Virus record (IMG/VR): IMGVR_UViG_3300009537_000020
Span: 1-50,348 of that record
DNA length: 50,348 nucleotides
Strand: one strand, 5' to 3'
Origin: a virus
Shown: positions 29,498 through 50,348 of the stretch, one piece after another
How positions within the stretch are numbered: the stretch's first letter is position 1
Layout: each line of letters starts with the position of its first letter
Translations under genes and position numbers: made by a program
The notes under the pieces: generated by a model
What the model saw: the letters and a program-made list of their open reading frames with translations, nothing else
The model's database searches: none
What the model was told of the DNA's origin: nothing

Positions 29498-29968
29498 ATG
29501 AGCACACGAACACAGATAGGATTTTACGAAAAAGATTCTGCATTAGAAAACCCGCATACGTTACTATATCGCCATAGTGACGGATACCCGGGCGACCCGG
29601 ACAAAAATGAGTATGGCGTGCTTACTGATCTGATTCCATTTTGCACCAACTTTATTAAAAACAGGGGCTTTGATATAGAATACATCGGAGCCAGGGCGTT
29701 ATGTTATCTGATCCATAAGCATACCGAAGATCTCCCGGGCCAAGCCGGCTGGAAAGACAAGATCTATCCATTCGGCGGATTCCTGTCTTATGGCATTTGC
29801 CGGCCGGGCGCGTTTCACGGTGATATTGAATATTATTACGCTGTTTATTGCGATCGAATCGATGTATATGAATGCGGATTTTTTGCCGAACAGCCGGGCG
29901 ATTGGGTTAAAATAAGCACTGTTACATCAAACGCTGATAAAACCTATAAATATTTGAGTTTAACATGA
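29498..29968 (+). CDS. phage early protein of the MSTR-type family, unknown function
   Basis: Protein of 156 residues with AAAAGGACAGGTGAAA upstream. It starts MSTRTQIGFYE and has HSDGYPGDPDK, the signature of a widespread phage protein group that begins MSTR.xIGI and contains a H.DGYP motif. Function of that group is not known to me. First gene of the early operon. Confidence 0.75.
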   Translation: MSTRTQIGFYEKDSALENPHTLLYRHSDGYPGDPDKNEYGVLTDLIPFCTNFIKNRGFDIEYIGARALCYLIHKHTEDLPGQAGWKDKIYPFGGFLSYGICRPGAFHGDIEYYYAVYCDRIDVYECGFFAEQPGDWVKISTVTSNADKTYKYLSLT

Positions 29969-30027
29969 GCGCGCTGATCTTCGACATCATCTTACTCGCG
30001 GTCATATTTTATATAGAATTTCATTAA
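29965..30027 (+). CDS. 20-residue hydrophobic peptide
   Basis: ATG overlapping the preceding TGA (ATGA), reading MSALIFDIILLAVIFYIEFH. Nearly all hydrophobic, so a membrane peptide. Small size makes it tentative. Confidence 0.35.
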   Translation: MSALIFDIILLAVIFYIEFH

Positions 30028-30051
30028 TAATAACAAAGGACAGGTGAAATC

Positions 30052-30450
30052 ATGGAAGCAATAAAAGAGCAGTTAACTCCTCATAATTTATCACAATTCA
30101 CAGGAACAGAGCAATACTTCAAACATTGGACAAAAAAACTTGTCTATACAGACGGCGTCCGGTACATCGGGGCCAACGGCGCGTATTGGGTTATTGACCT
30201 GATCGCCAGTTACCAAAACGATGTCTTCACCCCAGCCAACCCCTTCCAATCCTGGAAAATCCGCCGGACGGATTCGGGCGGATTCATAGCCACGGCCACG
30301 GATGGAAACCAGCCGGATTATGCAGGGGCTAAAATCGATTACTTAGTTGTCCAAGATGGCGGGTATACCGATCTCCCGATAGATCTGGAGTTTTATCTTA
30401 TCGCGGATGAAACATTCAAAGCGGTTTTATTGTTACCAAGTGAATATTGA
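30052..30450 (+). CDS. DUF6876-like protein
   Basis: Protein of 132 residues with AAAGGACAGGTGAAA, the same leader as the first early gene. The pattern GANGAYWVIDLIASYQ, FQSWKIRR and YTDLPIDLEFYLI fits the DUF6876 family known from phages and plasmids, function unknown. Confidence 0.7.
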   Translation: MEAIKEQLTPHNLSQFTGTEQYFKHWTKKLVYTDGVRYIGANGAYWVIDLIASYQNDVFTPANPFQSWKIRRTDSGGFIATATDGNQPDYAGAKIDYLVVQDGGYTDLPIDLEFYLIADETFKAVLLLPSEY

Positions 30451-30470
30451 AAAGATAAAAAGTAAGGACC

Positions 30471-30560
30471 ATGAACAGAAAAGACAAAGAAATACTCGGA
30501 GATTTAGGCGCGTTTATCGCGCTGATCGTTTTATTAATGGCTGTGTATCTTTTAACTTAA
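30471..30560 (+). CDS. 29-residue membrane peptide
   Basis: ATG after AGTAAGGACC. MNRKDKEILGDLGAFIALIV begins a charged leader followed by a single hydrophobic span. Unknown role. Confidence 0.45.
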   Translation: MNRKDKEILGDLGAFIALIVLLMAVYLLT

Positions 30561-30605
30561 GGCGTAAGGCGCCGGCCTATGACAGGCGCTAAAAGGACGG
30601 GAAAG

Positions 30606-31031
30606 ATGAAATATTTTAAAGAAGGGCGAGATCGGCAGTATAAAGCATATTACGAATTATCAGAAGATGAAAAGAAGGTCTGGGATGACCGGGAAATAAC
30701 ACACATCAAGGTATCGCTTGAATACACAAAGGGCGGTATTAATTATTACTCCGGAGCGACAAATCCGCGGGGTTACCGGATAACAACAACCCCGGTCGCC
30801 TTGTCTGATCAATACGGCTATACAACCGAATCATATACGCTATTAGGAGATAGAAAAAACAGCGGCGGTTATGTGATGATCGAGCCGTCCAACAGGTATA
30901 ATGCCGGGCGATTGGCGCAGTTGGCCTATCGTTATGACGCTAAGGTTCCGGAGATAGCTAAGGCCGTAATAAAAGACTCGGTCGCGGAGCTTGTCACTTT
31001 AGTAAAAGACGCGGATCTGGCAGTTGTATAA
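30606..31031 (+). CDS. early protein, unknown
   Basis: 141 residues from the ATG at 30606 (AAAAGGACGGGAAAG upstream); an in-frame ATG at 30579 is a possible alternative. Lys/Tyr-rich N-terminal half and helical Ala/Val-rich C-terminus. Composition is typical of phage early inhibitors, but no family recognised. Confidence 0.65.
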   Translation: MKYFKEGRDRQYKAYYELSEDEKKVWDDREITHIKVSLEYTKGGINYYSGATNPRGYRITTTPVALSDQYGYTTESYTLLGDRKNSGGYVMIEPSNRYNAGRLAQLAYRYDAKVPEIAKAVIKDSVAELVTLVKDADLAVV

Positions 31032-31065
31032 TTAATATTAATCTTTATCTACAAGGAGTTATGTT

Positions 31066-31236
31066 ATGAAAGGATTGGCATGGTATTCAATTATTATTGT
31101 TAGCTTCTCAATTTTATCATTAATTATTGATGTTATGGCAGGGACATCAACAGACGTCTCCGTAGATCTTTGGGGGGCAGCTTTATATATTCCGATATTC
31201 CTGTATTTGGCTTTGAAAATTAAAGAACAGAATTAA
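31066..31236 (+). CDS. 56-residue two-span membrane protein
   Basis: ATG with AAGGAG 6 nt upstream. Two hydrophobic segments (IIIVSFSILSLIIDVM and LWGAALYIPIFLYLAL) separated by a Thr/Ser/Asp loop. Unknown function; candidates are inner-membrane modulation or superinfection exclusion. Confidence 0.6.
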   Translation: MKGLAWYSIIIVSFSILSLIIDVMAGTSTDVSVDLWGAALYIPIFLYLALKIKEQN

Positions 31237-31250
31237 TAAGGAGATTAAAG

Positions 31251-31547
31251 ATGCGGACATTGGTTGTCGGTGATATAGTTAAGAGCACCCGGGAGATCCT
31301 GGGCAATGAACCCGGGGCGCTCGGTTTTGTTTACGAAATGTATGACATTGGGACTCCCGAAGATCCATCGCCCGGAGTTTCGATTATATTTGAAAACGGC
31401 GAGTATGACGGCTTTTCACATCAAGAGCAGGACTTATATGTTACCCGGGTCGGCCGATGTGATGAATTGGCGGGATACAAATTTAAAAATGTTATGAAAG
31501 TATCGCAGGACTTCAGAGATGGAGTATTTGACCCGGCGTTTGCTTAA
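31251..31547 (+). CDS. conserved phage early protein, unknown
   Basis: 98 residues with AAGGAG. VGDIVKSTREILGNEPGALGF and IIFENGEYDGFS are motifs I know from small phage proteins of unknown function; beta-barrel-like pattern. Confidence 0.65.
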   Translation: MRTLVVGDIVKSTREILGNEPGALGFVYEMYDIGTPEDPSPGVSIIFENGEYDGFSHQEQDLYVTRVGRCDELAGYKFKNVMKVSQDFRDGVFDPAFA

Positions 31548-31554
31548 ATAACCC

Positions 31555-31616
31555 TGCCCCGCGTCCCGGAGATCACCTGTCGCCGGGTTTTCCCTGGCCT
31601 GTCCAGGGCCGGGGCA
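31555..31616 (+). ncRNA. three-way-junction RNA element
   Basis: In the 87-nt gap between two early genes TGCCCCG (31555-31561) pairs with CGGGGCA (31610-31616), enclosing two hairpins: CCCGG (31565-31569)/CCGGG (31583-31587) and CCCTGG (31592-31597)/CCAGGG (31603-31608). No T-run follows, so not a plain terminator. It sits just before the AAAAGGAG ribosome site of the next gene. Likely a regulatory leader or processed small RNA. Confidence 0.5.
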
Positions 31617-31634
31617 CAACAAAAGGAGTCGGCC

Positions 31635-31907
31635 ATGTTAGACTTTTTAAAAAGAAAATCCCCGGAAACAAAGAAAATAAAAAAGATCGATTTATTAAAA
31701 GAGTGGTGTTCAGGTGTTGGGGTGTTCAGTACGACCGATGTCAAACGTTGGGGATTAGATCACTTTTACAGTTCCGCTGACGTTCGTGTTAGAATAGATC
31801 TAAAGAATGAAGGGTTTGTCCGGCAGATACCGGATGATGAAGCCAGGGAGCGGCACCTGATAAAAGAGGGCAACAAAAACATCCGCTGGTACGAGATCGT
31901 CAAATGA
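31635..31907 (+). CDS. winged-helix-like early protein
   Basis: 90 residues after AAAAGGAG. STTDVKRWGLDHFYSSADVRVR followed by a beta wing (GFVRQIPDDE, IRWYEIV) resembles a short winged helix-turn-helix module. Ends 4 nt inside the RHH gene. Possible DNA-binding regulator; tentative. Confidence 0.55.
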   Translation: MLDFLKRKSPETKKIKKIDLLKEWCSGVGVFSTTDVKRWGLDHFYSSADVRVRIDLKNEGFVRQIPDDEARERHLIKEGNKNIRWYEIVK

Positions 31908-32104
31908 CAACCGCTTTTTCAACAACCGTAAACTTCAATGCCGATGAATTAAAAAAACTAGATGATGAAATGTCTAAATCGGGAATGACAAGGCGATCAA
32001 CATATATAAAACACGCCCTGATCACATTTTGGAGGCAGCAACATGAAGCGAATCCTGAAAATAGTGACAGCTTTGGAGTTCGACCACAGCAAGAAAGCAC
32101 TTAG
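31904..32104 (+). CDS. ribbon-helix-helix DNA-binding protein
   Basis: 66 residues. FSTTVNFNADELKKLDDEMS and GMTRRSTYIKHALITFW match the strand-helix-helix pattern of RHH repressors. It overlaps neighbours on both sides (62 nt downstream). A good candidate for the regulator of the TTGTTAAC operators, since no CI-type repressor is seen; that link is inference. Confidence 0.7.
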   Translation: MTTAFSTTVNFNADELKKLDDEMSKSGMTRRSTYIKHALITFWRQQHEANPENSDSFGVRPQQEST

Positions 32105-32306
32105 CGAAGCCATGAACGCCGATTATCATCGAGCGTTGGCCTTAGTGAGAAAGACAAAAAAATGCGGATCCGCGTCCAAAGTGATAGAGATGCTATTATT
32201 TGATAATGATGAAACGCTGCAAACGCGTGTCCTGGCCATCTTCATTGCCGGTTCGATGCAGGGCAGGACCCCGACAATTATCGTAAATAAACAAACCAGA
32301 GAATAG
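32043..32306 (+). CDS. conserved small phage protein
   Basis: 87 residues with GGAGGCAGCA upstream, starting 62 nt inside the RHH gene in another frame. Helical, with a segment LQTRVLAIFIAGSMQGRTP in the C-terminal half that I associate with small phage proteins of unknown function. Confidence 0.6.
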   Translation: MKRILKIVTALEFDHSKKALSEAMNADYHRALALVRKTKKCGSASKVIEMLLFDNDETLQTRVLAIFIAGSMQGRTPTIIVNKQTRE

Positions 32307-32315
32307 GAGAAAAAA

Positions 32316-32588
32316 ATGATCACACAACCCCACAAAGATTATTTATGCTTAATCCTTTTCCTTTTTACCTGTGCCCTGCTTCTTTGGGCGTGCCCGGCAC
32401 GCCCGGCATTCCCGGATGATATAAAAGACAAGGCCGTCCAGGAGGCCTTGGATTGCGCTGACCCTGATTTGCTTCCTGACACCCCGGGCGCTGATCTAAA
32501 AACCGCTTATTACCAGTTAAAAGAGTTAGCTAAAGAGTACCCGGGTGAGATCGATGTTAAAATTGTCTGTAAGAAAAAGGAGAAATAA
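32316..32588 (+). CDS. exported protein, possible lipoprotein
   Basis: 90 residues with AGGAGAAAAAA. N-terminal hydrophobic span (LCLILFLFTCALLLW) followed by AC, a weak lipobox. The mature part is acidic with two further Cys. Suggests a periplasmic early protein. Confidence 0.6.
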   Translation: MITQPHKDYLCLILFLFTCALLLWACPARPAFPDDIKDKAVQEALDCADPDLLPDTPGADLKTAYYQLKELAKEYPGEIDVKIVCKKKEK

Positions 32589-32794
32589 TGGGACCACACA
32601 TGAAGCGGATTATGGCCACGATGAAATTCCATAAAAAGAACGCTAAGTTTTTTAAAATGACCCCGAAAAATAAAAAAACAGAGGGTGAAAAGGATATCAC
32701 TTCGTATAAAATAGAACGGCGAATTATTGTGGACGAAAAATTAAGAAAAAGCAACTTCCCCAGAAGGTTCAGGGCTAGAAAGACAGGGGTTTAA
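32588..32794 (+). CDS. Lys/Arg-rich small protein
   Basis: 68 residues, highly basic (KKNAKFFKMTPKNKK; RRFRARK at the end). The upstream gene ends at the first base. AAAGGAGAAATA precedes the ATG. Likely nucleic-acid binding; function unknown. Confidence 0.55.
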   Translation: MGPHMKRIMATMKFHKKNAKFFKMTPKNKKTEGEKDITSYKIERRIIVDEKLRKSNFPRRFRARKTGV

Positions 32795-32795
32795 A

Positions 32796-32936
32796 ATGAC
32801 AGAAAAATATCTTTACCCGAGTAAATTCTTTAATTGGCGCGGCTGGGATTTCATTAAATGGCCGTTCGCGTTCGCTATCCTTGCGGCCATCATCTGGATT
32901 ATCTGGGCAACGGCTACCGGCCAGAATCCTATATAA
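32796..32936 (+). CDS. 46-residue membrane protein
   Basis: ATG 1 nt after the previous stop. A hydrophilic N-terminus (MTEKYLYPSKFFNWRGWDF) precedes a single span (AFAILAAIIWIIWA). The next ATG directly follows its TAA. Unknown. Confidence 0.55.
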   Translation: MTEKYLYPSKFFNWRGWDFIKWPFAFAILAAIIWIIWATATGQNPI

Positions 32937-33362
32937 ATGATACACAAGCCCTGTTCAAAATGCGGGACATTAGATTACCCGAAATTTAAAAGAGTCCGCG
33001 ATCAAGGCCAAGGTAAGAAAACTTATTACAGCCGGCATTGCATCTTGTGCGAGCGCGAAGCGTACAAAATGCGATATGAACGCCTGCGCCTGGATCCGGA
33101 GAGATACAGAAAAGTCATCGAGTCCAATTCCCGCTACAATAAAAAGCACAAAGCCAAGCTAAAGAAATATTCACAAGCCTGGGAAAAAAGAAACGCGTCA
33201 AGAAGAAGGCAGCAGAAACGCGAGTATTATCTAACGCATAGGGATAAACTCATGGAGTACAGCCGGAATTGGAAAAAGAAAAATCTTAAACCTAAAAAGA
33301 AACAGACAGCCGAGCATCCATGGTGTGCTCTTAATAGATCGATAAGAAATCAAACAAAATAA
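32937..33362 (+). CDS. zinc-knuckle, very basic protein
   Basis: 141 residues. CSKCG and CILCE (about 20 residues apart) form a likely zinc site; the remainder is Lys/Arg/Tyr-rich with repeated YSR/RNW motifs and no HNH catalytic motif. It resembles the basic zinc proteins often next to phage HNH genes. The last plus-strand gene ends 7 nt before the converging minus-strand gene. Confidence 0.6.
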   Translation: MIHKPCSKCGTLDYPKFKRVRDQGQGKKTYYSRHCILCEREAYKMRYERLRLDPERYRKVIESNSRYNKKHKAKLKKYSQAWEKRNASRRRQQKREYYLTHRDKLMEYSRNWKKKNLKPKKKQTAEHPWCALNRSIRNQTK

Positions 33363-33369
33363 TAATTAT

Positions 33370-33666
33370 TTATGTTTTAGGAAAAACAATTCTATTCAGC
33401 GGTACATCCCCTTTTTGTTTCTCATCATATTTTACAATCTCCAGGACAATACCTTTCGGTAGCTTATATTCACTGACCTTATCCATGGTTTCCTTATCTT
33501 TGAACACATGGATCCAGACCCTGTGATGATGCGTATCAAACCCAAAAAAATCAAATAACGGTTTCGGGCTTGGGAATATCGAATACCCCCTGCTGGAATA
33601 ATAAGAACGGACCTTATTGTCTATCTTCCGGCTTTTTGTAATCGTTGAACTGGCTTTTGTTTTCAT
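33370..33666 (-). CDS. possible nuclease-like early protein
   Basis: 98 residues from the ATG at 33666 (GGGAGAAAATAA upstream). A YYSSRGYSIFP start and a FDFFGFD...WIHVFK middle resemble a degenerate PD-(D/E)xK core, but key residues are not all visible. It overlaps the upstream gene by 53 nt. Tentative. Confidence 0.5.
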   Translation of the reverse strand: MKTKASSTITKSRKIDNKVRSYYSSRGYSIFPSPKPLFDFFGFDTHHHRVWIHVFKDKETMDKVSEYKLPKGIVLEIVKYDEKQKGDVPLNRIVFPKT

Positions 33667-33964
33667 ATTTATTTTCTCCCTGGGTATGAACATCAGGTTG
33701 AGGCGCGACGCCTTCCGGGATATAAGTGACCGTCCTCTTTTCCAATTCTCCGAGGTATTCAACGATGTCCCGCTGGTACCGGTCAACCTTCTTTGCGTTA
33801 TCAATAACCAGGTCGATACGTTTTGTTATCTCAGACAACAAGCTCTGTGCCGTCTGTACGTCATTCTCGATATATTTCCCGTCGGGAGTCTTACGAACGA
33901 GTGTTTTTAGTATTTCCCTGTCGTTTATCCTCAAGGCCCACGCGTTTAAATGTTCTAAATTCAT
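33614..33964 (-). CDS. unknown helical protein
   Basis: 116 residues, largely helical and charged; disordered Gln/Asn/Lys C-terminus overlapping the next gene in another frame. AAAGGAGAAATGG precedes the ATG. No motif recognised. Confidence 0.6.
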   Translation of the reverse strand: MNLEHLNAWALRINDREILKTLVRKTPDGKYIENDVQTAQSLLSEITKRIDLVIDNAKKVDRYQRDIVEYLGELEKRTVTYIPEGVAPQPDVHTQGENKYENKSQFNDYKKPEDRQ

Positions 33965-34292
33965 AATCCATTTCTCCTTTTTTTATTAACTCATATATAA
34001 GCCGATGCACTTCATCGGGGTTTATGTTTAAGACGCTGCTATTTTTTAAATAATTTAAGAATCCGTTCTTTTCCCAGCTGCTCTTAAAAAAGCCATGCTG
34101 GAATTCGGATTCGCATTTTATCAAATACCCGGCAAGATCAGTTACAAGCTCATCCGTATTAAGCCCGGCAAAATACGGCGTATCTGTACCGCCGGTTTCA
34201 ATGATCGCCAACAGTTGGTACGTTTGATATACAGAAAACTTATACTTATGTGCAATCTGTATTGTCCTTTTGAGGTCGAGTAATTCTTGCAA
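33891..34292 (-). CDS. unknown protein near chaperonin genes
   Basis: 133 residues, helical. TYQLLAIIETGGTDTPYFAGLN suggests a compact domain, the rest is charged. Start overlaps the GroES-like gene by 47 nt and its end overlaps the next by 74 nt. No family recognised. Confidence 0.55.
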   Translation of the reverse strand: MQELLDLKRTIQIAHKYKFSVYQTYQLLAIIETGGTDTPYFAGLNTDELVTDLAGYLIKCESEFQHGFFKSSWEKNGFLNYLKNSSVLNINPDEVHRLIYELIKKGEMDYEFRTFKRVGLEDKRQGNTKNTRS

Positions 34293-34524
34293 TGACCAGC
34301 TCCTCCTTTATAAACATTTTTTCTTCTCCGTTAACATTCGCTTTAACGATCATGTCCGGCTCGGCGATAACAATATCTCCAACCATTATCCCGACGGAGG
34401 CCATTGAGCTAATTAACTCTTGATCTTTATAAGTCTTAACAACCTCATACTCATTACAATCATCCCACGCGATATCGCTGCGCTGGACCTGCTTAACCTG
34501 AATGTACCCGTTAACTGGATCCAT
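34246..34524 (-). CDS. divergent GroES-like co-chaperonin candidate
   Basis: 92 residues with AAAGGAGAAAATT upstream. VGDIVIAEPDMIVKANVNG followed by EKMFIKEELVIARI parallels the GroES core (kvGDIVif...G.k.ei.geeyli..esDILaiv), and a strand at GYIQVKQV fits the first strand. The usual mobile-loop IVL motif is absent; a short loop around residues 15-35 would take its place. Two genes after groEL, size typical. Fold assignment is inference. Confidence 0.5.
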   Translation of the reverse strand: MDPVNGYIQVKQVQRSDIAWDDCNEYEVVKTYKDQELISSMASVGIMVGDIVIAEPDMIVKANVNGEEKMFIKEELVIARITRPQKDNTDCT

Positions 34525-34729
34525 AATTTTCTCCTTTGTCTTTAAGATTTATCTTTTCTGTTATTTTTTGGAACATAAGCTTCCAATCATTTCTTGTCCC
34601 ATTGAATTGATGAAAATATAACAAGGCATAAATATTCATACGAAGAGAATAAGGATAATTTCTTTTATCAAACTCTTTATCAAGCTGGAACATAAAATCA
34701 ACAAGATCGTTTACAACTGCATGCTCCAT
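34511..34729 (-). CDS. small protein between groEL and the GroES-like gene
   Basis: 72 residues from the ATG at 34729 (AAGGAGAAAATT upstream). Helical (LVDFMFQLDKEFDKRN, YALLYFHQF), no domain recognised. Its position between the two chaperonin genes and a similar leader suggest a linked function. Confidence 0.6.
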   Translation of the reverse strand: MEHAVVNDLVDFMFQLDKEFDKRNYPYSLRMNIYALLYFHQFNGTRNDWKLMFQKITEKINLKDKGENYGSS

Positions 34730-34739
34730 AATTTTCTCC

Positions 34740-36356
34740 TTACATTGACTTTGGTTTTGGTGTCCTTGCCGGTTCAACCTCTTCATCCTCTGAACACAAA
34801 CATTCCGTGGTTAGAAGCATTCCGGCGACAGAAGCGGCATTGACCAAGGCGGTCTTAACAACCTTAGCGGGGTCAATAACACCCATTTCCATCAGGTCAC
34901 CGTATTTATTTGTTAGAAAATCGTACCCGTCATTAACGCCGAGCATCAATTTAATTTGGGCGATGATCTCAGACCCTTCAACCCCGGCGTTAAAAGCGAT
35001 CTGAATTAACGGAGCGCGCAATGCTTTTTTAACAATGCGTTGGCCAATCAACTCCTCTTCCGTTTCCTTTCCTGTTTCTTTGATGGAGTCGGTTGAATGA
35101 AGGTACGCCAAACCGCCGCCTGGAACGATGCCGTCCTCAAGAGCCGCCCTGGTAGCCAAAAGCGAGTCCTCGATCCTCATTTTCTTTTCCTTCTGTTCAA
35201 CCTCGGTCGGCGCGCCGACTTTGATAACGGCAACCCCGTTTGTTAGCTTTGATAATCGTTCCCGGAGCTTTTCCCGGTCATAATCGCTTTCTGATTTTTC
35301 GATCTGCTGTTTTATAGACGTTATTCGGCCTTCAATAACCGATTTGTCACCTTTGCCATCAACTATGGTTGTAAAATGGCGCGTGGCTTTGATCGTTTCA
35401 CATTCGCCTAAATGGCTAAGATCAGCGTCTTCAGGCCGAAGGCCGCTTACCGGCCCTATGATGCTGCCGCCGGTTAATGCCGCAATATCACTTAATTGTT
35501 CTGTTCTAAACTCACCAAAATACGGAGATTTTACAACAACAAGTGAAATATTATTCTTCATCCTTGTCTGGACAAGGTTTTGTAATACGGATGCGTGGAC
35601 CGAATTAGCCATCAAACAGACTGCCCGGCCGGTGTTGATCGCTTTCTCAATGATCCCCTTGATCTGATTAACATGAGAAATGTCGCCATCGATAATGATT
35701 ATGTACGGCTTTGACATATTAGCTTCCATCTTAACCGGGTCGGTAATGAAATACGGGCTCATTAACCCTTCCATGAGCTGCATCCCTTCCATGATCTCAA
35801 TAAAAGTATCGCTCCCCTGGTAATTATCCTCAATGGTAATAACGCCGTCTTCCCCGGCCGTCTTTACCGCTTCATTGATCAATTCGCCGATCCCGCGGTC
35901 ATTATTAGCTGATAACGAGGCAACTTTTATGATTGTTTCCTCTTCGATCAATTTTATCTTTGTGCTGTCAATGTATTTAATGACCTCTTCAACCGCTTTA
36001 TCGATGCCCCGTTTGATTAAGATCGGGTTTGCCCCTGATTTAAGGACTTTTAACCCTTCCGTAAAGATTTCCTGGGCAAGTAATGTGGCCGTTGTTGTCC
36101 CGTCGCCGGCGTCATCAGCCGTTTTCTGGGCCACTTGTCGTACCAATAAAAGGCCGAGTTGTTCGTCCGGATCCTTTGCTTCAACCTGTCGCGCTACAGT
36201 TACCCCGTCCTTTGTGCATACCGGATAACCATAATGGAACCCAAAAATCATATTCCGCCCGCGTGGCCCGAGTGTGACCTTTACCGAATTTGCAATAAGG
36301 TCAACGCCTCTTTTAAGTTTTTCCCTGGCTTCGTCCGAAAATGTTACTGACTTCAT
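34740..36356 (-). CDS. groEL: GroEL-type chaperonin
   Basis: 538 residues, near the normal 548. Group I chaperonin with apical, intermediate and equatorial domains in order: KDGVTV (Asp50, equivalent of E. coli Asp52), DAGDGTTTATLL (Asp85, equivalent of Asp87), IEDSLLATRAA (equivalent of Asp398) and PGGGLAYL. So the ATPase residues are kept. The tail lacks the GGM repeat and ends in an acidic and basic stretch (EDEEVEPARTPKPKSM). AAAGGAGGCA precedes the ATG. A phage GroEL is uncommon; folding of capsid or ejection proteins is the likely role. Host contamination is unlikely, as it lies inside an early operon. Confidence 0.95.
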   Translation of the reverse strand: MKSVTFSDEAREKLKRGVDLIANSVKVTLGPRGRNMIFGFHYGYPVCTKDGVTVARQVEAKDPDEQLGLLLVRQVAQKTADDAGDGTTTATLLAQEIFTEGLKVLKSGANPILIKRGIDKAVEEVIKYIDSTKIKLIEEETIIKVASLSANNDRGIGELINEAVKTAGEDGVITIEDNYQGSDTFIEIMEGMQLMEGLMSPYFITDPVKMEANMSKPYIIIIDGDISHVNQIKGIIEKAINTGRAVCLMANSVHASVLQNLVQTRMKNNISLVVVKSPYFGEFRTEQLSDIAALTGGSIIGPVSGLRPEDADLSHLGECETIKATRHFTTIVDGKGDKSVIEGRITSIKQQIEKSESDYDREKLRERLSKLTNGVAVIKVGAPTEVEQKEKKMRIEDSLLATRAALEDGIVPGGGLAYLHSTDSIKETGKETEEELIGQRIVKKALRAPLIQIAFNAGVEGSEIIAQIKLMLGVNDGYDFLTNKYGDLMEMGVIDPAKVVKTALVNAASVAGMLLTTECLCSEDEEVEPARTPKPKSM

Positions 36357-37046: not shown

Positions 37047-37487
37047 TTAACTATTATGTATCTTATAATCTAATTCATAAATAGCTGTCTTTAACTTTTC
37101 ATGACTAGGTATATCTGGCTCCGGAATATGGCCTTTAGCCCACCTCATCCAGTATAAATTTGATAAATTATGATTTTTTATATTCATTTTTTGTTCTAAA
37201 TAATCTGAAACGTCCTTCCTGAACCAAAATTCCTTATTGCTATTGACGCGACGCTTCTCAAGAACGCCAGATGCATAATATTCATTCATAACTAACGGGA
37301 CTGTTGGCAACATCTTATATTTCATATATTCAAGATTATTAATAATCCAATATGAAATCTCTTCATCAGCGGCTTTTAGATCAACTTTGCTTAAATTAAC
37401 AAGCTTTTTTAGTGTTTCCATCTCTGGTGACGAACTATTTAAGATAGTGCTGAAAATTTTTATGTTCTTTACTGGAGTTTGGTTCAT
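37047..37487 (-). CDS. unknown protein of the replication module
   Basis: 146 residues from the ATG at 37487 (GGTGGTATAAAA upstream). Lys/Asn-rich, helical; FRKDVSDYLEQKM and WMRWAKGHIP in the second half could be an excisionase-like or helix-turn-helix segment. Overlaps the initiator by 53 nt. Confidence 0.55.
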   Translation of the reverse strand: MNQTPVKNIKIFSTILNSSSPEMETLKKLVNLSKVDLKAADEEISYWIINNLEYMKYKMLPTVPLVMNEYYASGVLEKRRVNSNKEFWFRKDVSDYLEQKMNIKNHNLSNLYWMRWAKGHIPEPDIPSHEKLKTAIYELDYKIHNS

Positions 37488-38268
37488 TTTTATACCACCT
37501 ATCCCAGCCCTCAGCATTCCTGAAGGCCGCTTTCCAATCCTTCATTTTGTTTTTGCCAACCATCCAACCCTTTGATGCATAAAAATCTAAGAATATTTGA
37601 GGTATGACCACACTATTCCGTTCATTAGCATACGCTTTTACTTCTTCTAAAGTTGGTTCTTTGAACCCCCCATATACATTCTTCTTAATGTTTATTAATG
37701 CTTTATAATGTTTGTTTGTGTTCACTCGTTGTTCACTCGTTGTTCGCTGGTTGTTCACTGGTTGTTCATTTTGTTGTTCAGAAATATATAATTCCCCGAC
37801 GTCATTCGATTGTTCATCTTGTTGTTCGCTTTTTGGGTCTTTTTTGATTTTACCTGCCTTTTTCGTTGCACCGTCGAGGGATTCTTCTAAACCGTTGTCA
37901 TTCAAAGTATTATGAACCTTAATTCCGTTGTTCACCTGTTGTTCACTTTGCTGGTATTGAGCGTAATTAAATATTGATACCAAAGTAAATACGTTATTTT
38001 TTCGCTGTTCAATTAGGCGTTCTTTTTCAAATAAATTTAATAGCCTATAAATCTTATTTTCGTCTATTCCGGTCTTTTCGCTTAAAGCTTTTCGGCCAGA
38101 AACAAATTGACCGCACCGGCACAACATCTTTTTACCATTAAACATAAATACGCGATCTTTATGGTTTGCCATAAGAAGGATACAACACCATAGATGAAAT
38201 GTTTCAGAATCAAGAAATATGAAACTATCCTCAATTTTACGCCAGAGCTTTACGTATCCACGATGCAT
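37435..38268 (-). CDS. phage replication initiator (replisome organiser-like)
   Basis: 277 residues. The N-terminal winged helix (HRGYVKLWRKIEDSFIFLD... GRKALSEKTGIDENKIYRLL) is typical of phage replisome organisers. A Gln/Asn/Ser-rich linker (SEQQNEQPVNNQ) is followed by a DnaD-like C-terminus (DWKAAFRNAEGWDRWY). It binds the origin and loads the host helicase. The linker DNA carries iteron-like repeats. Confidence 0.75.
   Translation of the reverse strand: MHRGYVKLWRKIEDSFIFLDSETFHLWCCILLMANHKDRVFMFNGKKMLCRCGQFVSGRKALSEKTGIDENKIYRLLNLFEKERLIEQRKNNVFTLVSIFNYAQYQQSEQQVNNGIKVHNTLNDNGLEESLDGATKKAGKIKKDPKSEQQDEQSNDVGELYISEQQNEQPVNNQRTTSEQRVNTNKHYKALINIKKNVYGGFKEPTLEEVKAYANERNSVVIPQIFLDFYASKGWMVGKNKMKDWKAAFRNAEGWDRWYKNEPNSSKEHKNFQHYLK
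37720..37793. repeat. iteron-like tandem repeats with AT-rich flank (candidate origin)
   Basis: Four tandem 11-mers GTTCACTCGTT, GTTCACTCGTT, GTTCGCTGGTT, GTTCACTGGTT (37720-37763), then GTTCATTTTGTT and GTTCAG, followed by the AT-rich stretch AAATATATAATT. Copies of TTGTTC recur at 37812-37829 and 37926-37947. Placement inside the initiator gene mirrors lambda O, but the repeats also encode the low-complexity linker. Confidence 0.5.
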
Positions 38269-41042: not shown

Positions 41043-41897
41043 CTAATGTGTTGGGTTAAGCTTATTTTGCTTTTTAAGTCCTAACATCTTAATTAATGTT
41101 TTGGTTTGCCATTTTCTTTCAGCATCCCTAGCAGCATCCCTAGCAGCCCTAGCAGCAGCCCAAGCGGCAGCCCCAGCAGCCCTAGCGGCATCCCAAGCAG
41201 CAGCCCTAGCTGCATCCCCAGCAGCCCCAGCAGCAGCCCAAGCGGCATCCCAAGCGGCAGCCCTAGCGGCATCCCAAGCAGCAGCCCTAGCGGCATCCCA
41301 AGCAGCAGCCCTAGCTGCATCCCCAGCAGCCCAAGCGGCATCCCTAGCAGCATCCCCAGCGGCATCCCTAGCAGCAGCCCCAGCAGCAGCCCTAGCGGCA
41401 TCCCAAGCAGCAGCCCAAGCGGCATCCCTAGCAGCAGCCCCAGCGGCATCCCCAGCAGCAGCCCTAGCAACAGCCAATTCTTCTTTGCTTATTTCCCCTA
41501 ACGCAAATAGTCTAGCTTTTTCTATTACAATTCTAGGTCTTTTATCGTTAGGGTATTCCTTTTCAAATATCGGCAATACTCTTTTTGCACATTTGACAAC
41601 GAATAGCCTTGCGTTCTTATCATTCCACGAATCAATACGCCTAATTAGCCTTGCCTGTTGGGCGACAACCTTATTGTCATCCTTAATAATGGTCCCCTTT
41701 AACTCAACTTCATAAAGTTCTTTGTTTGTCCATTGAATTAAATCTTTTTGTTCACAGGCATGATAACCCCTCTTACATAACCCAATATCTTCGATGAAGG
41801 GCATCCACTTGCCCTTACGTTTACCTTTAGGTAAATACCACTTGCCTGTGCCATAAGCTGGTTCGCCGTCTTTTTGAAGAAATTTGTAGTATTTCAT
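41043..41897 (-). CDS. Ala/Arg/Asp/Trp-repeat protein (DUF7666-like head)
   Basis: 284 residues. The first 140 residues (WYLPKGKRKGKWMPFI, KRGYHACEQKDLIQW, ELYEVELKG, ARLIRRIDSWNDKNARLF, VLPIFEKEYPNDKRPR) match phage proteins with a DUF7666-like head. Residues about 145-260 are a long amphipathic helix of AAAWDAARAA-type repeats. The start follows AAGGATAGGAT. Function not known to me. Confidence 0.75.
   Translation of the reverse strand: MKYYKFLQKDGEPAYGTGKWYLPKGKRKGKWMPFIEDIGLCKRGYHACEQKDLIQWTNKELYEVELKGTIIKDDNKVVAQQARLIRRIDSWNDKNARLFVVKCAKRVLPIFEKEYPNDKRPRIVIEKARLFALGEISKEELAVARAAAGDAAGAAARDAAWAAAWDAARAAAGAAARDAAGDAARDAAWAAGDAARAAAWDAARAAAWDAARAAAWDAAWAAAGAAGDAARAAAWDAARAAGAAAWAAARAARDAARDAERKWQTKTLIKMLGLKKQNKLNPTH
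41118..41470 (-). repeat. GC-rich tandem coding repeat (units of about 9-24 nt)
   Basis: About 350 nt of degenerate repeats with cores such as GCCGCTAGGGCTGCT and GCTTGGGATGCC; three 24-nt units stand in a row near 41264-41330. The high-GC insert contrasts with the AT-rich genome. All of several frames stay open here on both strands, an effect of the repeat. Copy number changes by slippage are expected. Confidence 0.7.
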
Positions 41898-45890: not shown

Positions 45891-48800
45891 TTATTTTTGT
45901 CGTCGGGACTTGCGGATAATAGCTGGGGATGCTGCTTTAATATGCAGTATTTTACGTTCTAATTCACGCATTTTATCGGCGTCGTACATCTTTCGCATCT
46001 CACGTAAAATGATTTCTTTCTCCTCATTTGTTCTGGCGGTCATAAGCATATCAAGATATACGTTTGGCCCGCGCTCTTTTTCTTGTTTTATATCATCACG
46101 AATATTTTTCATTTGGCGTGTGGTTGGATTGTCATAAAGTTTTTTAGATATATCTTTTGATACTTTATTTAAGCTTTCTCCTTTTTCTATACGATCAGCC
46201 GCCTTATCTATAAGCTCACGCTTCAATATAGTTCTTTTGGCCTGATCCTTATCAATATCCTCACGAACCTTGCGTAATGACTCAGTTTTACCGTAATCAC
46301 TTACTTTTATAAGCCTATTTACCCCTGGAACCTTCCTAATAATTGACTCAAATGTTGTCTGGCTCTTGTCAGAATACGTTGCAAATTGAACAAGGCCAGA
46401 GTTATTTGTCGTCCATTGTACCATTTTCTTTAAAGAAGGCCATCCTCCAGCCTTCCAGGCGGTGTCAGAAATAAGATATTGACCGCGGAAGGCATCATAA
46501 GGGTTTTTACCGGTTAAATACTGGATCCACGCCCCTGACATCTCAATACCAGGGGCAAGGCCAGGCATCTGACCAGATCCGAATGCGAAAATCTGTTGCA
46601 ATTGTTTAGGGTCTTTTTCGTAAATTCCCATTCCAACTTTCCAAAAAATAGCTGTCATTAATCGTCCGGTTTCATCGTGAGGTATTCTAAAATAAACAGT
46701 CTTTCCGTTCGAATCTTTCCCGACCGGTATAATAATATAATTAGTCTTATCGTATTCACTTATATTATCGTATAAGTCTTTTATCTCTTTGCCGGCCAAC
46801 CCTATAGAAGCAGCAATCATTAAAAATTTTGGCAATATATTTATTTTAAAATGTGACCACCAGAATCCGCTTCTTGTCTTTGGATGCGTAGCCAGCTGTG
46901 CATCTGCCTTCAGCCCTTCTTTCATAATATTAGAGAACATCCAGACTGAGTTTGTAACAGATGTTATCGTACCTCCTCGACGATAATTAGGAGTACCAAT
47001 ATAATTCCTTGTCATATACGAAACTTGTTTTTGACTAAGATTAGGATCGTCCTTTAATATATTATACCCGGCAATTTTAGATAAAGACTCTAACGTGCTG
47101 CCCATGAACCGAACCCCCTCCATAAAAGCTAACAACGGACGAAGTAACGGCTTCATTAATTTCTGGTATTGATGTTCCTCCCCTTTTAATATTCCAAGCT
47201 GTCTTAAAATACCGTGATAATCATCGCCATGAATATCAAAATTAAAATCTATAAAAGGAATGTCAAGGGCGTACGTACCAAGCATTTCTTTAATGGTGTT
47301 ATCTTCTAAACCCATCTGTCTACGAATAGACGTCGGTAAAGCTTGAGCATACACAGATAGCAGTTTCAAAAGAGATACTTTCTGCCCCATAGCGTTCAAG
47401 TTTGCATAAGTACGCTTGAAGTCACGGATAGGGTTGAAAGCAAAAGCGAATCCAGGGTTATATGTAATATAAAGATTCTTAAATATTTGATTTCCGAAAA
47501 CTTTATTTATTAAATGGCCAACAAGCATAACATCACCATCTTTGTTAGCTTCCACAGATTTTGCTATATACTGATCTACCTCATAAGCGGTAAGTTTCCC
47601 GTCTTCCAGAAGCTTAATTAATCCCATGCCGGATCCAGGCTTTGGTTTAGCAAAATTACCTCTAATATCTTTCTTAACAAGTTTAATTTCTCCCGGGAAA
47701 GATTTTTTAAGCCAATCACGCAACTGGTTTGCCGCCCTTTGTCTGGAATTTAACCGGTTTAAAGATATCATTTTTAAGATGGTAGTTATAAATGGATTCT
47801 CAATGTCAAGCAGGGTACCTTTCTGCATTTTTACAGTAGCCGGAACATGCTCTTGAAGATAATTTAAAACTCCAAAAGTTGCATAATACCCTTTATTTGG
47901 CTTGATAATATTCTCAAAGGTCTCTCTATTATAACTTCCGACTCTGACAGCCTCTTCAATTATAGGCCAAATTATTTCGTGGAAATCCCGAGCTATCCTT
48001 TCGATCTCATTAAATTTTTCAGGCCCGATCTTCTCTGCAAAGAATCTCATCTGTTCGGCTGCGCTCTTTGGTGAATACCCTAACGGATTTGCAATATCCT
48101 TCCTACCGGGGACATTAAAGAATTCTTTCTTCATCATCTCGCCTTCTTCTTCAGAAAAAGGCATAAATTCTTCTGGAGGAGATTGTATATCTCCCTGTAA
48201 GGGCATTTCAGGGCGGCCCATAACACGTTTTAGAAATAAATAAATACCTAAATCGTCATCTTTCATCCCAATCTCTGTTAAGGGCTTATTCACCTTATTA
48301 TCAATATCGGACATTAAAAGAAAATTATCGTTGTCAACTAAGGATCTTTCTTCCAATTCATACTCCGGGCTTTCCGACGGTGGCAAGAATTCACCTTTAC
48401 TTTCTATCGATCTGCGCTTTGCAATGATTGGATAATTAATATCATCAACCATCTGCCTTATTCGTTCCCAATAATTAACATTAGAAAGTTCTTTTTCTTT
48501 TCGTTTTTGATCGCGGAGTTCCTCCCCTTTGGCATACATCTGACGTATATCTTCGTCGCGCCTTTTCAATAACTCCGCCGGTTTACCATCAAGAATATCC
48601 TGGATATAAAAATATTCTTGTTTAACTAAAGATTTTTTATCAAGAGCCTCAAAAAATAATTCAAAAGTTTCCGGGGCGATCTTCTTTGCAAGACTTGGGT
48701 TGTTAAAAAGAACAGACACGAAATCAGCGTACAGTTCCACGCTGCTATAACGGTATTTTATATATCCTTCGCTTGATAGCGCTTCATCAAATGGTTTCCA

Positions 48801-50348
48801 CTTTTTGGTCAAAGCTTTCAACTCTTCTCTTAATTCCTTATTTGTGACAACATTTTCCCCGAAAGTATTTTTTAAGAATTTCCTAAGAGAAAACAGCCGG
48901 CCATATATATTCCCACGCTTCATTGTATTCTGAGGAACATAATCAATCAAATGACCAATCTCATGCGCCAGAGTTGATGCCAATTGTTCCTCATTACCAC
49001 GTTTGAATAATTCATAATTGATTCCTATTTGCCCCTGTTCACGCGGATAGAATTTACCGTAACTTGCAGGATATTTCTTTGGTATCGGTGGCCCGCCCAT
49101 AATATCACTGGCAATCTTTACCATTTCGATAACTGGTATTGGCTTCACATCAACGGTTTCTGATTCTTGCGGGAGTCCTTCTGCTGTCTCATCGACGGAG
49201 CTAAGTTGCTCTGGGGATTCTTTATTCTTAGATCGCTGTCTTTCAATTAATGCTTTCTTATAATCATAAATATCTTTAGCAGCATCTAATATTTCTTGAT
49301 CTGATAATGAATCAATCTTTTGTCTATCAATATCTGTACTCTTTTGCCCATGCCATTTTAAACTTTCTCGCATATTTCCGATAATATCTTTTCGAGTCAT
49401 CCCGGCGGTTCCATCATTATCAAGATAACTTTTATATAAACTGCTCAATAAATTCTCAATAGAACCCCATTCTTCTGATACATTATCTCCCTCTACGTCT
49501 TGGCCTGTATTTGGATCTATAAGTCCTGGACTTCCTTCGCTTATACGTTCTGCGTAAACCGATTCTAAAGAATCCAATACTTCCTGGGTTAATCCTCTTT
49601 CGTACGCACCTTCTATGAAATACTCTAGTTCTGTTATGTTGAGCTTCCTAGCTTCATTCTCAATTTCCTGTAATTCCTTAGATTTGGTTCTTGGAGGACT
49701 GTCTTCTTCATCCCACGTATCTTCTTTACTAAGCGGTTCGTCTTGATTAGCCTTTCGTACAATTGCTGATGTTTCTGATTCCGAAATGCCTTCCGTATTG
49801 GCTTGTCCACCGTACACCTCCTTATGCCAGCCTCTTAATAATTGAGCGGTCTCAATCTGTTTATTAGTCAGCGGCTTATCATTATTAATTGCAGCAAACA
49901 TTGGGACCATGTGATCGTGATTAAGCCCTATATTTTTCAACTCCGTCGGGAATGTTGAGGGGCTTCTTATCTTTGACCCTGGACGGTCACCAGGGATTAA
50001 CGGACCTCCTGCCACCCAATCACCAGACAAAATCTCAACTTCTTTTAAAGCCTCTTTATCTTCTATAGTAAGAATAGGTTGCTTTGATGCCGGCTTATTT
50101 GATCGCAATACCCTTCCTTTTTTATCTCTCCTCAACGGCTCCGGTTCTACTTTAAAATTAAGAAGCCCTGGCTCCTCTGTAACCGTTGGTTCACTTGTTA
50201 TTTGATCGAAAACATCTCCCTTACCTTGTTGGGGATTAATCTCAATAGGCTTTCCCTGCTCATCTCTGGCTATTCTTGGCTTTATATCAGACGGCTCAAA
50301 GGTTATTTGGTCAAATATATCTTTTCCTGGTTTAATTGGCTCTGCTTT
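45891..50348 (-). CDS. giant polyvalent ejection protein with HEIGH metalloprotease motif (5' end cut by window edge)
   Basis: Open for 1485 codons from the window edge to the stop at 45891. The first 50 residues shown contain KDIFDQITF and GDVFDQITS, the same motif as the fragment at 1-827. A gluzincin-type zinc site AHEIGHLIDYVP lies at about 48951-48965 with a helical region after it. Further on (FFAEKIGPEKFNEIERIARD, LNRLNSRQRAANQL, TYNPGFAFAFNPIRDF) it resembles the LPD38-type polyvalent phage proteins. Probably an internal virion protein that enters the host with DNA. The frame does not join directly to that of 1-827. Confidence 0.8.
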   Translation of the reverse strand, partial: KAEPIKPGKDIFDQITFEPSDIKPRIARDEQGKPIEINPQQGKGDVFDQITSEPTVTEEPGLLNFKVEPEPLRRDKKGRVLRSNKPASKQPILTIEDKEALKEVEILSGDWVAGGPLIPGDRPGSKIRSPSTFPTELKNIGLNHDHMVPMFAAINNDKPLTNKQIETAQLLRGWHKEVYGGQANTEGISESETSAIVRKANQDEPLSKEDTWDEEDSPPRTKSKELQEIENEARKLNITELEYFIEGAYERGLTQEVLDSLESVYAERISEGSPGLIDPNTGQDVEGDNVSEEWGSIENLLSSLYKSYLDNDGTAGMTRKDIIGNMRESLKWHGQKSTDIDRQKIDSLSDQEILDAAKDIYDYKKALIERQRSKNKESPEQLSSVDETAEGLPQESETVDVKPIPVIEMVKIASDIMGGPPIPKKYPASYGKFYPREQGQIGINYELFKRGNEEQLASTLAHEIGHLIDYVPQNTMKRGNIYGRLFSLRKFLKNTFGENVVTNKELREELKALTKKWKPFDEALSSEGYIKYRYSSVELYADFVSVLFNNPSLAKKIAPETFELFFEALDKKSLVKQEYFYIQDILDGKPAELLKRRDEDIRQMYAKGEELRDQKRKEKELSNVNYWERIRQMVDDINYPIIAKRRSIESKGEFLPPSESPEYELEERSLVDNDNFLLMSDIDNKVNKPLTEIGMKDDDLGIYLFLKRVMGRPEMPLQGDIQSPPEEFMPFSEEEGEMMKKEFFNVPGRKDIANPLGYSPKSAAEQMRFFAEKIGPEKFNEIERIARDFHEIIWPIIEEAVRVGSYNRETFENIIKPNKGYYATFGVLNYLQEHVPATVKMQKGTLLDIENPFITTILKMISLNRLNSRQRAANQLRDWLKKSFPGEIKLVKKDIRGNFAKPKPGSGMGLIKLLEDGKLTAYEVDQYIAKSVEANKDGDVMLVGHLINKVFGNQIFKNLYITYNPGFAFAFNPIRDFKRTYANLNAMGQKVSLLKLLSVYAQALPTSIRRQMGLEDNTIKEMLGTYALDIPFIDFNFDIHGDDYHGILRQLGILKGEEHQYQKLMKPLLRPLLAFMEGVRFMGSTLESLSKIAGYNILKDDPNLSQKQVSYMTRNYIGTPNYRRGGTITSVTNSVWMFSNIMKEGLKADAQLATHPKTRSGFWWSHFKINILPKFLMIAASIGLAGKEIKDLYDNISEYDKTNYIIIPVGKDSNGKTVYFRIPHDETGRLMTAIFWKVGMGIYEKDPKQLQQIFAFGSGQMPGLAPGIEMSGAWIQYLTGKNPYDAFRGQYLISDTAWKAGGWPSLKKMVQWTTNNSGLVQFATYSDKSQTTFESIIRKVPGVNRLIKVSDYGKTESLRKVREDIDKDQAKRTILKRELIDKAADRIEKGESLNKVSKDISKKLYDNPTTRQMKNIRDDIKQEKERGPNVYLDMLMTARTNEEKEIILREMRKMYDADKMRELERKILHIKAASPAIIRKSRRQK

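What the first reader, a model, noticed from the sequence alone, without database searches (positions are those of the whole stretch)
34246..36356. Phage-encoded GroEL with a nearby divergent GroES-like protein
A full-length group I chaperonin with all three catalytic Asp equivalents sits inside the early operon, and the 92-residue protein two genes downstream has the GroES strand pattern (VGDIVIAEPDMIV... EELVIARI) but no canonical mobile loop. Phage GroEL is uncommon and a self-contained pair more so. The missing GGM tail and altered loop suggest co-evolution away from the host pair.
Basis: partly seen in the sequence, partly recalled or inferred. Interest (0 to 1): 0.8.

Follow-up and report, generated by a model that had tools for sequence, protein, structure and literature searches.

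The report
Phage chaperonin with reshaped lid interface
A roughly 50-kb uncultured phage carries its own GroEL protein-folding machine and, one gene away, a very diverged GroES-like lid; the contact surface has changed on both partners, so it looks like a chaperonin pair that has become private to the virus.

Summary
The GroEL is real, intact and full length (34740-36356, minus strand), with an unchanged ATPase site. The 92-aa ORF (34246-34524) fails every standard library. An HMM built from 54 GroES, nearly all from phage contigs, still picks it as the only significant hit in the window (E=8e-4). Among 11,009 ORFs of all fetched loci, nothing except GroES genes and one ORF directly upstream of a groEL scores as high. 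It sits between groEL and a conserved 116-aa gene, where sister phages carry a recognisable GroES. So the "GroES relative with an altered loop" stands. The rarity claim does not: a scan of IMG/VR gave at least 595 GroEL loci, most testable ones with groES directly upstream. New here: the loop-groove interface is changed on both sides. The lid's loop is 14 residues, against 22-26 in GroES outside this clade and 20 in sister phages. The GroEL groove deviates at 8 of 11 otherwise conserved helix H/I positions, the most of all compared. N265T occurs in none of 190 others; the published N265A mutant of GroEL cannot bind GroES. Best reading: a phage-private chaperonin pair. Binding is untested. New variant of a known kind.

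The parts
34740..36356 (-). groEL, 538 aa, group I chaperonin with intact ATPase site
35556..35675 (-). part of groEL coding residues 228-267 (helices H and I, the GroES and substrate groove), where 8 of 11 conserved positions are changed, including K233, Q263 and T264 (E. coli L234, V264, N265)
34511..34729 (-). small ORF (72 aa from the ATG with a ribosome site), unknown function, between groEL and the GroES-like gene
   Evidence: no family match
34246..34524 (-). GroES-like protein, 92 aa, candidate phage co-chaperonin
34450..34491 (-). shortened mobile-loop region of the GroES-like protein (residues 12-25, QVQRSDIAWDDCNE)
34531..34537 (-). ribosome binding site AAAGGAG of the GroES-like gene
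   Evidence: read from the sequence
33891..34292 (-). 133-aa ORF downstream, possible counterpart of an 84-aa/269-aa gene in the same place in sister phages (not significant)
   Evidence: rank 2, E=0.96
33614..33964 (-). 116-aa conserved cassette gene that marks the downstream side of the groES position

Best explanation
The phage makes its own GroEL ring and its own GroES-like lid from its early module. GroEL keeps the full ATPase machinery, so it should cycle with ATP. The lid keeps the GroES beta-barrel, but its mobile loop is cut to about 14 residues with a short hydrophobic patch (IAW) in the middle. The GroEL groove that receives the loop is also changed: K, I, Q and T stand where E. coli has L234, L237, V264 and N265. 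The pair most likely closes the cage through this altered contact and no longer exchanges partners with the host GroEL or GroES. Shown here: GroEL identity, intact catalytic residues, remote GroES homology, shared gene position, divergence on both sides of the contact. Inferred: that the two proteins bind, that the host partners are excluded, and that the clients are phage proteins.
For: GroES homology: only significant window hit of a 54-sequence GroES HMM, E=8e-4 of 524 ORFs; 1 of 20,000 shuffles reaches the score; among 11,009 ORFs the only others at or above 10 bits are 161 clear GroES and one ORF directly upstream of a groEL. Position: between groEL and the 116-aa homologue, as in sister phages with a Pfam-recognised GroES. 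Fold: GroES barrel, pLDDT 83, PDB hits are GroES chains. Interface: loop 14 residues against 22-26; groove 8 of 11 conserved positions changed, rank 1 of 89, while the equatorial domain is ordinary. Published contacts: GroES IVL touches L234, L237 and V264, and N265A blocks GroES binding (PMC3514286).
Against: No curated model recognises the 92-aa protein; a bacteria-only GroES HMM and a sister-clade GroES HMM do not find it significantly. The confident fold is partly circular, since GroES rows guided it; alone pLDDT is 42. The groove also binds substrate (PMC10723157), so its change need not concern the lid. No binding evidence. One sequence only; read errors cannot be checked.
Confidence: 0.58

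Rival explanations
1. The phage GroEL has become independent of a lid, as in phages EL, OBP and AR9. The GroES-like gene is a decaying or re-used remnant that no longer docks on GroEL.
For: Loss of the canonical loop on one side and of V264 and N265 on the other; lid-less phage GroELs are known (PMC7185714, PMC9598537); L073 (its nearest kin in one tree) has no GroES detected in its record and shares Q at position 264.
Against: The gene has a strong ribosome site and an open frame and keeps the second half of the GroES barrel; it holds the groES position of the clade. GroEL is 42-50% identical to ordinary GroELs, unlike EL at about 25%.
Confidence: 0.24
2. The lid works on the host GroEL and the phage GroEL works with the host GroES: two separate helpers rather than a pair, in the manner of T4 gp31.
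For: gp31 and CocO act on host GroEL (PMC9598537; PMC6318259).
Against: Known GroES proteins that dock on ordinary GroEL need a mobile loop with a hydrophobic tripeptide, and L27A abolishes binding (PMC3514286); here the loop is 10 residues shorter, whereas gp31 has a longer one. The changed groove with T at N265 should disfavour host GroES.
Confidence: 0.1
3. The 92-aa protein is not related to GroES; the similarity is chance in a small all-beta protein.
For: Curated libraries are silent, the match is partial (residues 40-82), and the single-sequence model was poor.
Against: Decoy and shuffle tests, the expected place next to groEL, and a confident GroES barrel once relatives guide the model (partly circular).
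Confidence: 0.08

Closest known systems
Bacterial GroEL-GroES (group I chaperonin and Cpn10)
   Same: full-length GroEL with all catalytic residues; neighbouring small protein with the GroES barrel pattern
   Different: gene order reversed with a gene between; loop 14 instead of 24 residues; groove changed at 8 of 11 conserved H/I positions
Phage GroEL-GroES pairs (e.g. Flavobacterium phage immuto, Bacteroides phage DAC19, many IMG/VR contigs)
   Same: both genes encoded by the phage, near replication or structural genes
   Different: those GroES are recognised by Pfam, lie directly upstream of groEL and keep a normal loop
Sister phages L015, L181, L183 and L184 (IMG/VR)
   Same: closest in the GroEL tree, groES downstream of groEL, same flanking 116-aa gene; L015 also shares the terminase and many structural genes
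   Different: their GroES passes Pfam (L015, L181), loop 20 residues, N265 kept; the groove is less changed (5-6 of 11)
T4 gp31 and RB49 CocO
   Same: phage GroES analogue with very low sequence identity (gp31 14% to GroES, PMC6318259)
   Different: they act on the host GroEL; gp31 has a longer loop (22 against 16 residues), here it is shorter
EL, OBP and AR9 phage chaperonins
   Same: phage-encoded GroEL with a changed co-chaperonin groove (EL)
   Different: giant phages, solitary and highly diverged GroELs that need no lid; here a GroES-like gene is present and GroEL is 42-50% identical to ordinary GroELs

Membership tests
GroEL (group I chaperonin) | curated GroEL model above cut-off | tested here: met
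   TIGR02348 614.8 bits against 582.1; PF00118 230.5 against 34.3
GroEL (group I chaperonin) | ATPase residues D52, D87, D398 and GDGTTT | tested here: met
   D50, D85, D397, GDGTTT
GroEL (group I chaperonin) | hydrophobic GroES/substrate groove with L234, L237, V264 and N265 | tested here: not met
   K, I, Q, T at these places; this bears on partner choice, not on GroEL identity
GroEL (group I chaperonin) | heptameric (double) ring that folds proteins | not testable with these tools
   needs purified protein
Cpn10/GroES | Pfam PF00166 above cut-off | tested here: not met
   no PF00166 hit at E of 10 or better; no NCBIfam hit
Cpn10/GroES | homologous beta-barrel | tested here: inconclusive
   remote-homology tests positive; model matches GroES but was guided by GroES rows
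Cpn10/GroES | mobile loop of usual length with GG plus hydrophobic tripeptide | tested here: not met
   14 residues, IAW, no GG
Cpn10/GroES | heptamer that caps GroEL | not testable with these tools
   needs biochemistry; therefore described as GroES-like, not filed as a Cpn10 member
EL/OBP/AR9 lid-less phage chaperonins | far diverged GroEL (about 25% for EL) without a phage co-chaperonin | tested here: not met
   42-50% identity, GroES-like neighbour present

The most novel reading that the evidence does not exclude
A natural GroEL/GroES pair in which lid docking has been rebuilt: a much shortened loop with new chemistry binds a groove that has lost the canonical V264 and N265 contacts, making the pair orthogonal to host chaperonins.
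Probability: 0.4. Interest if true: 0.72.

Novelty: new variant of a known kind. Interest (0 to 1): 0.5.

Why it matters
The GroES loop and the GroEL groove are among the most conserved contacts of group I chaperonins. A phage pair that changed both sides, with sister phages showing a milder state (loop 20, N265 kept), offers a graded series for asking how the lid contact can be rebuilt while the ATPase stays the same, and whether phages gain by uncoupling their folding machine from the host. An orthogonal pair would also be a useful laboratory tool.

Tried and rejected
Curated libraries, PDB sequences and tblastn against phage genomes for the 92-aa protein: nothing. Single-protein scans of IMG/VR for GroEL and for the 92-aa protein: no relative; alignment queries worked. 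Single-sequence AF2: uninformative. Terminase relatives L089/L090: no GroEL in their records, but these are fragments. RecT and the 1414-aa protein as baits: one distant relative and none. An HMM of the sister-clade GroES did not find the 92-aa protein, so it is either extremely diverged or a separate acquisition. Correlation of loop length with groove change over 55 pairs: rho -0.45, and -0.36 without window and L015, but uncorrected for kinship and with little spread in loop length, so not used as proof. I first took V264Q to be unique; L073 has it too, so only N265T is claimed as unique. 'Recent host copy' rejected: best identity 50%, closest kin in the trees are phages. 'Rare in phages' rejected, although some records in the collections are bacterial contigs. 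A careful tree did not finish in time, so supports are SH-aLRT of quick trees.

Full report
What is there. The window is a 50,348-base virus record, classed linear; the giant ORF at 45891-50135 has an open frame up to the window end, so the record is probably a fragment. It encodes a tailed phage: terminase, portal, capsid and baseplate-type genes on the left, and an early module on the right (YqaJ, RecT, DnaD-like loader, RusA). groEL lies at 34740-36356 on the minus strand within that early module. It is a full-length group I chaperonin (PF00118 230 bits; TIGR02348 equivalog above cut-off) with D50, D85, D397 and GDGTTT intact.

The 92-aa neighbour. The ORF at 34246-34524 has an AAAGGAG ribosome site 6 nt before its ATG; a similar site precedes the small ORF between it and groEL, whose better start is 34729, giving 72 aa. 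Pfam, PHROGs, NCBIfam and PDB sequence searches do not know it. A plain phmmer against the ORFs of 90 fetched loci nevertheless puts groES ORFs of other loci at the top, though weakly (E 0.16 and up). An HMM of 54 GroES collected from the loci (nearly all phage contigs, window left out) finds it as the only significant hit of 524 window ORFs, E=8e-4, next 1.8. One of 20,000 shuffled versions reaches its score. Among 11,009 ORFs of all loci, 161 score above 30 bits (clear GroES), and between 10 and 30 bits there are only two: this protein and L039 221-565, which itself stands directly upstream of a groEL. A bacteria-only HMM is not enough (rank 2, E=0.86). The matched part is residues 40-82, the second half of the barrel.

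Position. The nearest phage, L015 (a 51,429-base record), shares the terminase (45% identity), many structural genes, groEL (484 bits) and the 116-aa gene at 33614-33964 (E=1e-4 with a small HMM). In L015, L181 and L184 a GroES lies downstream of groEL and upstream of the 116-aa homologue; the L015 and L181 proteins are over the PF00166 cut-off. The 92-aa gene occupies that same place. In the other viral loci groES is usually directly upstream: of 88 loci with enough flank, 58 upstream, 3 downstream (all this clade), 4 elsewhere, 23 none in the fetched stretch. A direct comparison of the 92-aa protein with the L015 GroES is not significant and the sister-clade HMM misses it, so whether it is a far-diverged ortholog or a replacement is open.

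Fold. Alone, AF2 gives pLDDT 42. With 34 GroES rows from fetched loci it gives pLDDT 82.9, pTM 0.71, 50 residues at 90 or above, and Foldseek returns GroES chains first (E down to 2.6e-4, TM about 0.6) and viral GroES. This is partly circular because GroES rows guided the model.

The interface. Counted between E. coli GroES K13 and G38, the loop is 24 residues in E. coli, 22-26 in GroES outside this clade, 20 in L015, L181, L183 and L184, and 14 here. It keeps a small hydrophobic patch (IAW) but no GG. On the GroEL side, of 11 positions in helices H and I conserved in at least 95% of 79 bacterial GroELs, the window protein differs at 8; the median of the compared set is 1 and this is rank 1 of 89 (85 viral, the window, three bacterial). 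H/I identity to bacteria is 0.22 (L015 0.34, median viral 0.56), while the equatorial domain is ordinary (0.51 against 0.55). N265 is N in all 164 others of the first set and in the 26 loci added later, and T here. Other changes are shared with single relatives: Q at 264 also in L073, K at 234 also in L082 and L181. Published work states that the IVL tripeptide of GroES contacts L234, L237 and V264, and that N265A blocks GroES binding (PMC3514286); V264, N265 and R268 also contact substrate (PMC10723157). The change may therefore reflect the lid, the clients, or both.

Phylogeny. GroEL identity is at most 50%, to a Bacteroidales chromosome. Trees join the window with L015 (SH-aLRT 97 and 95) and with L015/L181/L183 (91), on long branches. 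Shared terminase and cassette order support common descent within this phage lineage. No recent host copy is visible.

How it most likely works. The ring keeps its ATP cycle; the lid is present but its contact has changed on both sides. The simplest reading is a private chaperonin pair with an altered docking contact (0.58). The chief rival is a lid-less GroEL as in EL, OBP and AR9, with the GroES-like gene re-used or decaying (0.24). Binding, ring number and clients were not tested.

Known or new. [quoted passage not shown] phages immuto and DAC19). One targeted search of the held library for a GroES with a shortened or missing loop returned no paper, which is weak evidence because many papers are not held. 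Verdict: new variant of a known kind.

Noticed in passing
window 41043-41897 (-): 284-aa protein with an Imm-5-like immunity-protein match (PF21805, E=3.5e-9) and a weaker DUF7666 match in the early module; purpose in a phage unclear.
   Followed up: no
window 45891-50135 (-), frame open to 50348: Giant ORF (1414 aa or more) with a sub-threshold LPD38 polyvalent-protein match; probably cut by the record end.
   Followed up: no
window 37047-37517 (-): 156-aa protein with a weak, sub-cut-off HEPN_LA2681 match (E=0.0014) beside the DnaD-like loader.
   Followed up: no
window about 29498-33362 (+): Block of small plus-strand ORFs without assigned function between the two minus-strand modules; GC skew turns positive at 30-32 kb.
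   Followed up: no
L039 221-565 (+): Another divergent GroES-like ORF (18 bits) directly upstream of a phage groEL, the only one besides the window protein between 10 and 30 bits.
   Followed up: no
window groEL residues I451 and E463: At E. coli R452 and V464, in the region listed here as inter-ring contact (from memory), the window protein has I and E; R452 is R in 76 of 79 bacterial GroELs. Could hint at a weaker ring-ring contact.
   Followed up: no
L073 (94,011-base record): Diverged phage GroEL with Q at position 264 and no GroES found in its record; a possible lid-less case related to this clade in one tree.
   Followed up: partly
L003 (MT835992.1), L004 (CAKLQH020000021.1): Records filed as phages whose groESL flanks look bacterial (glutamate synthase-like; pckG, dgkA); such records inflate counts of 'phage' GroEL.
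   Followed up: partly
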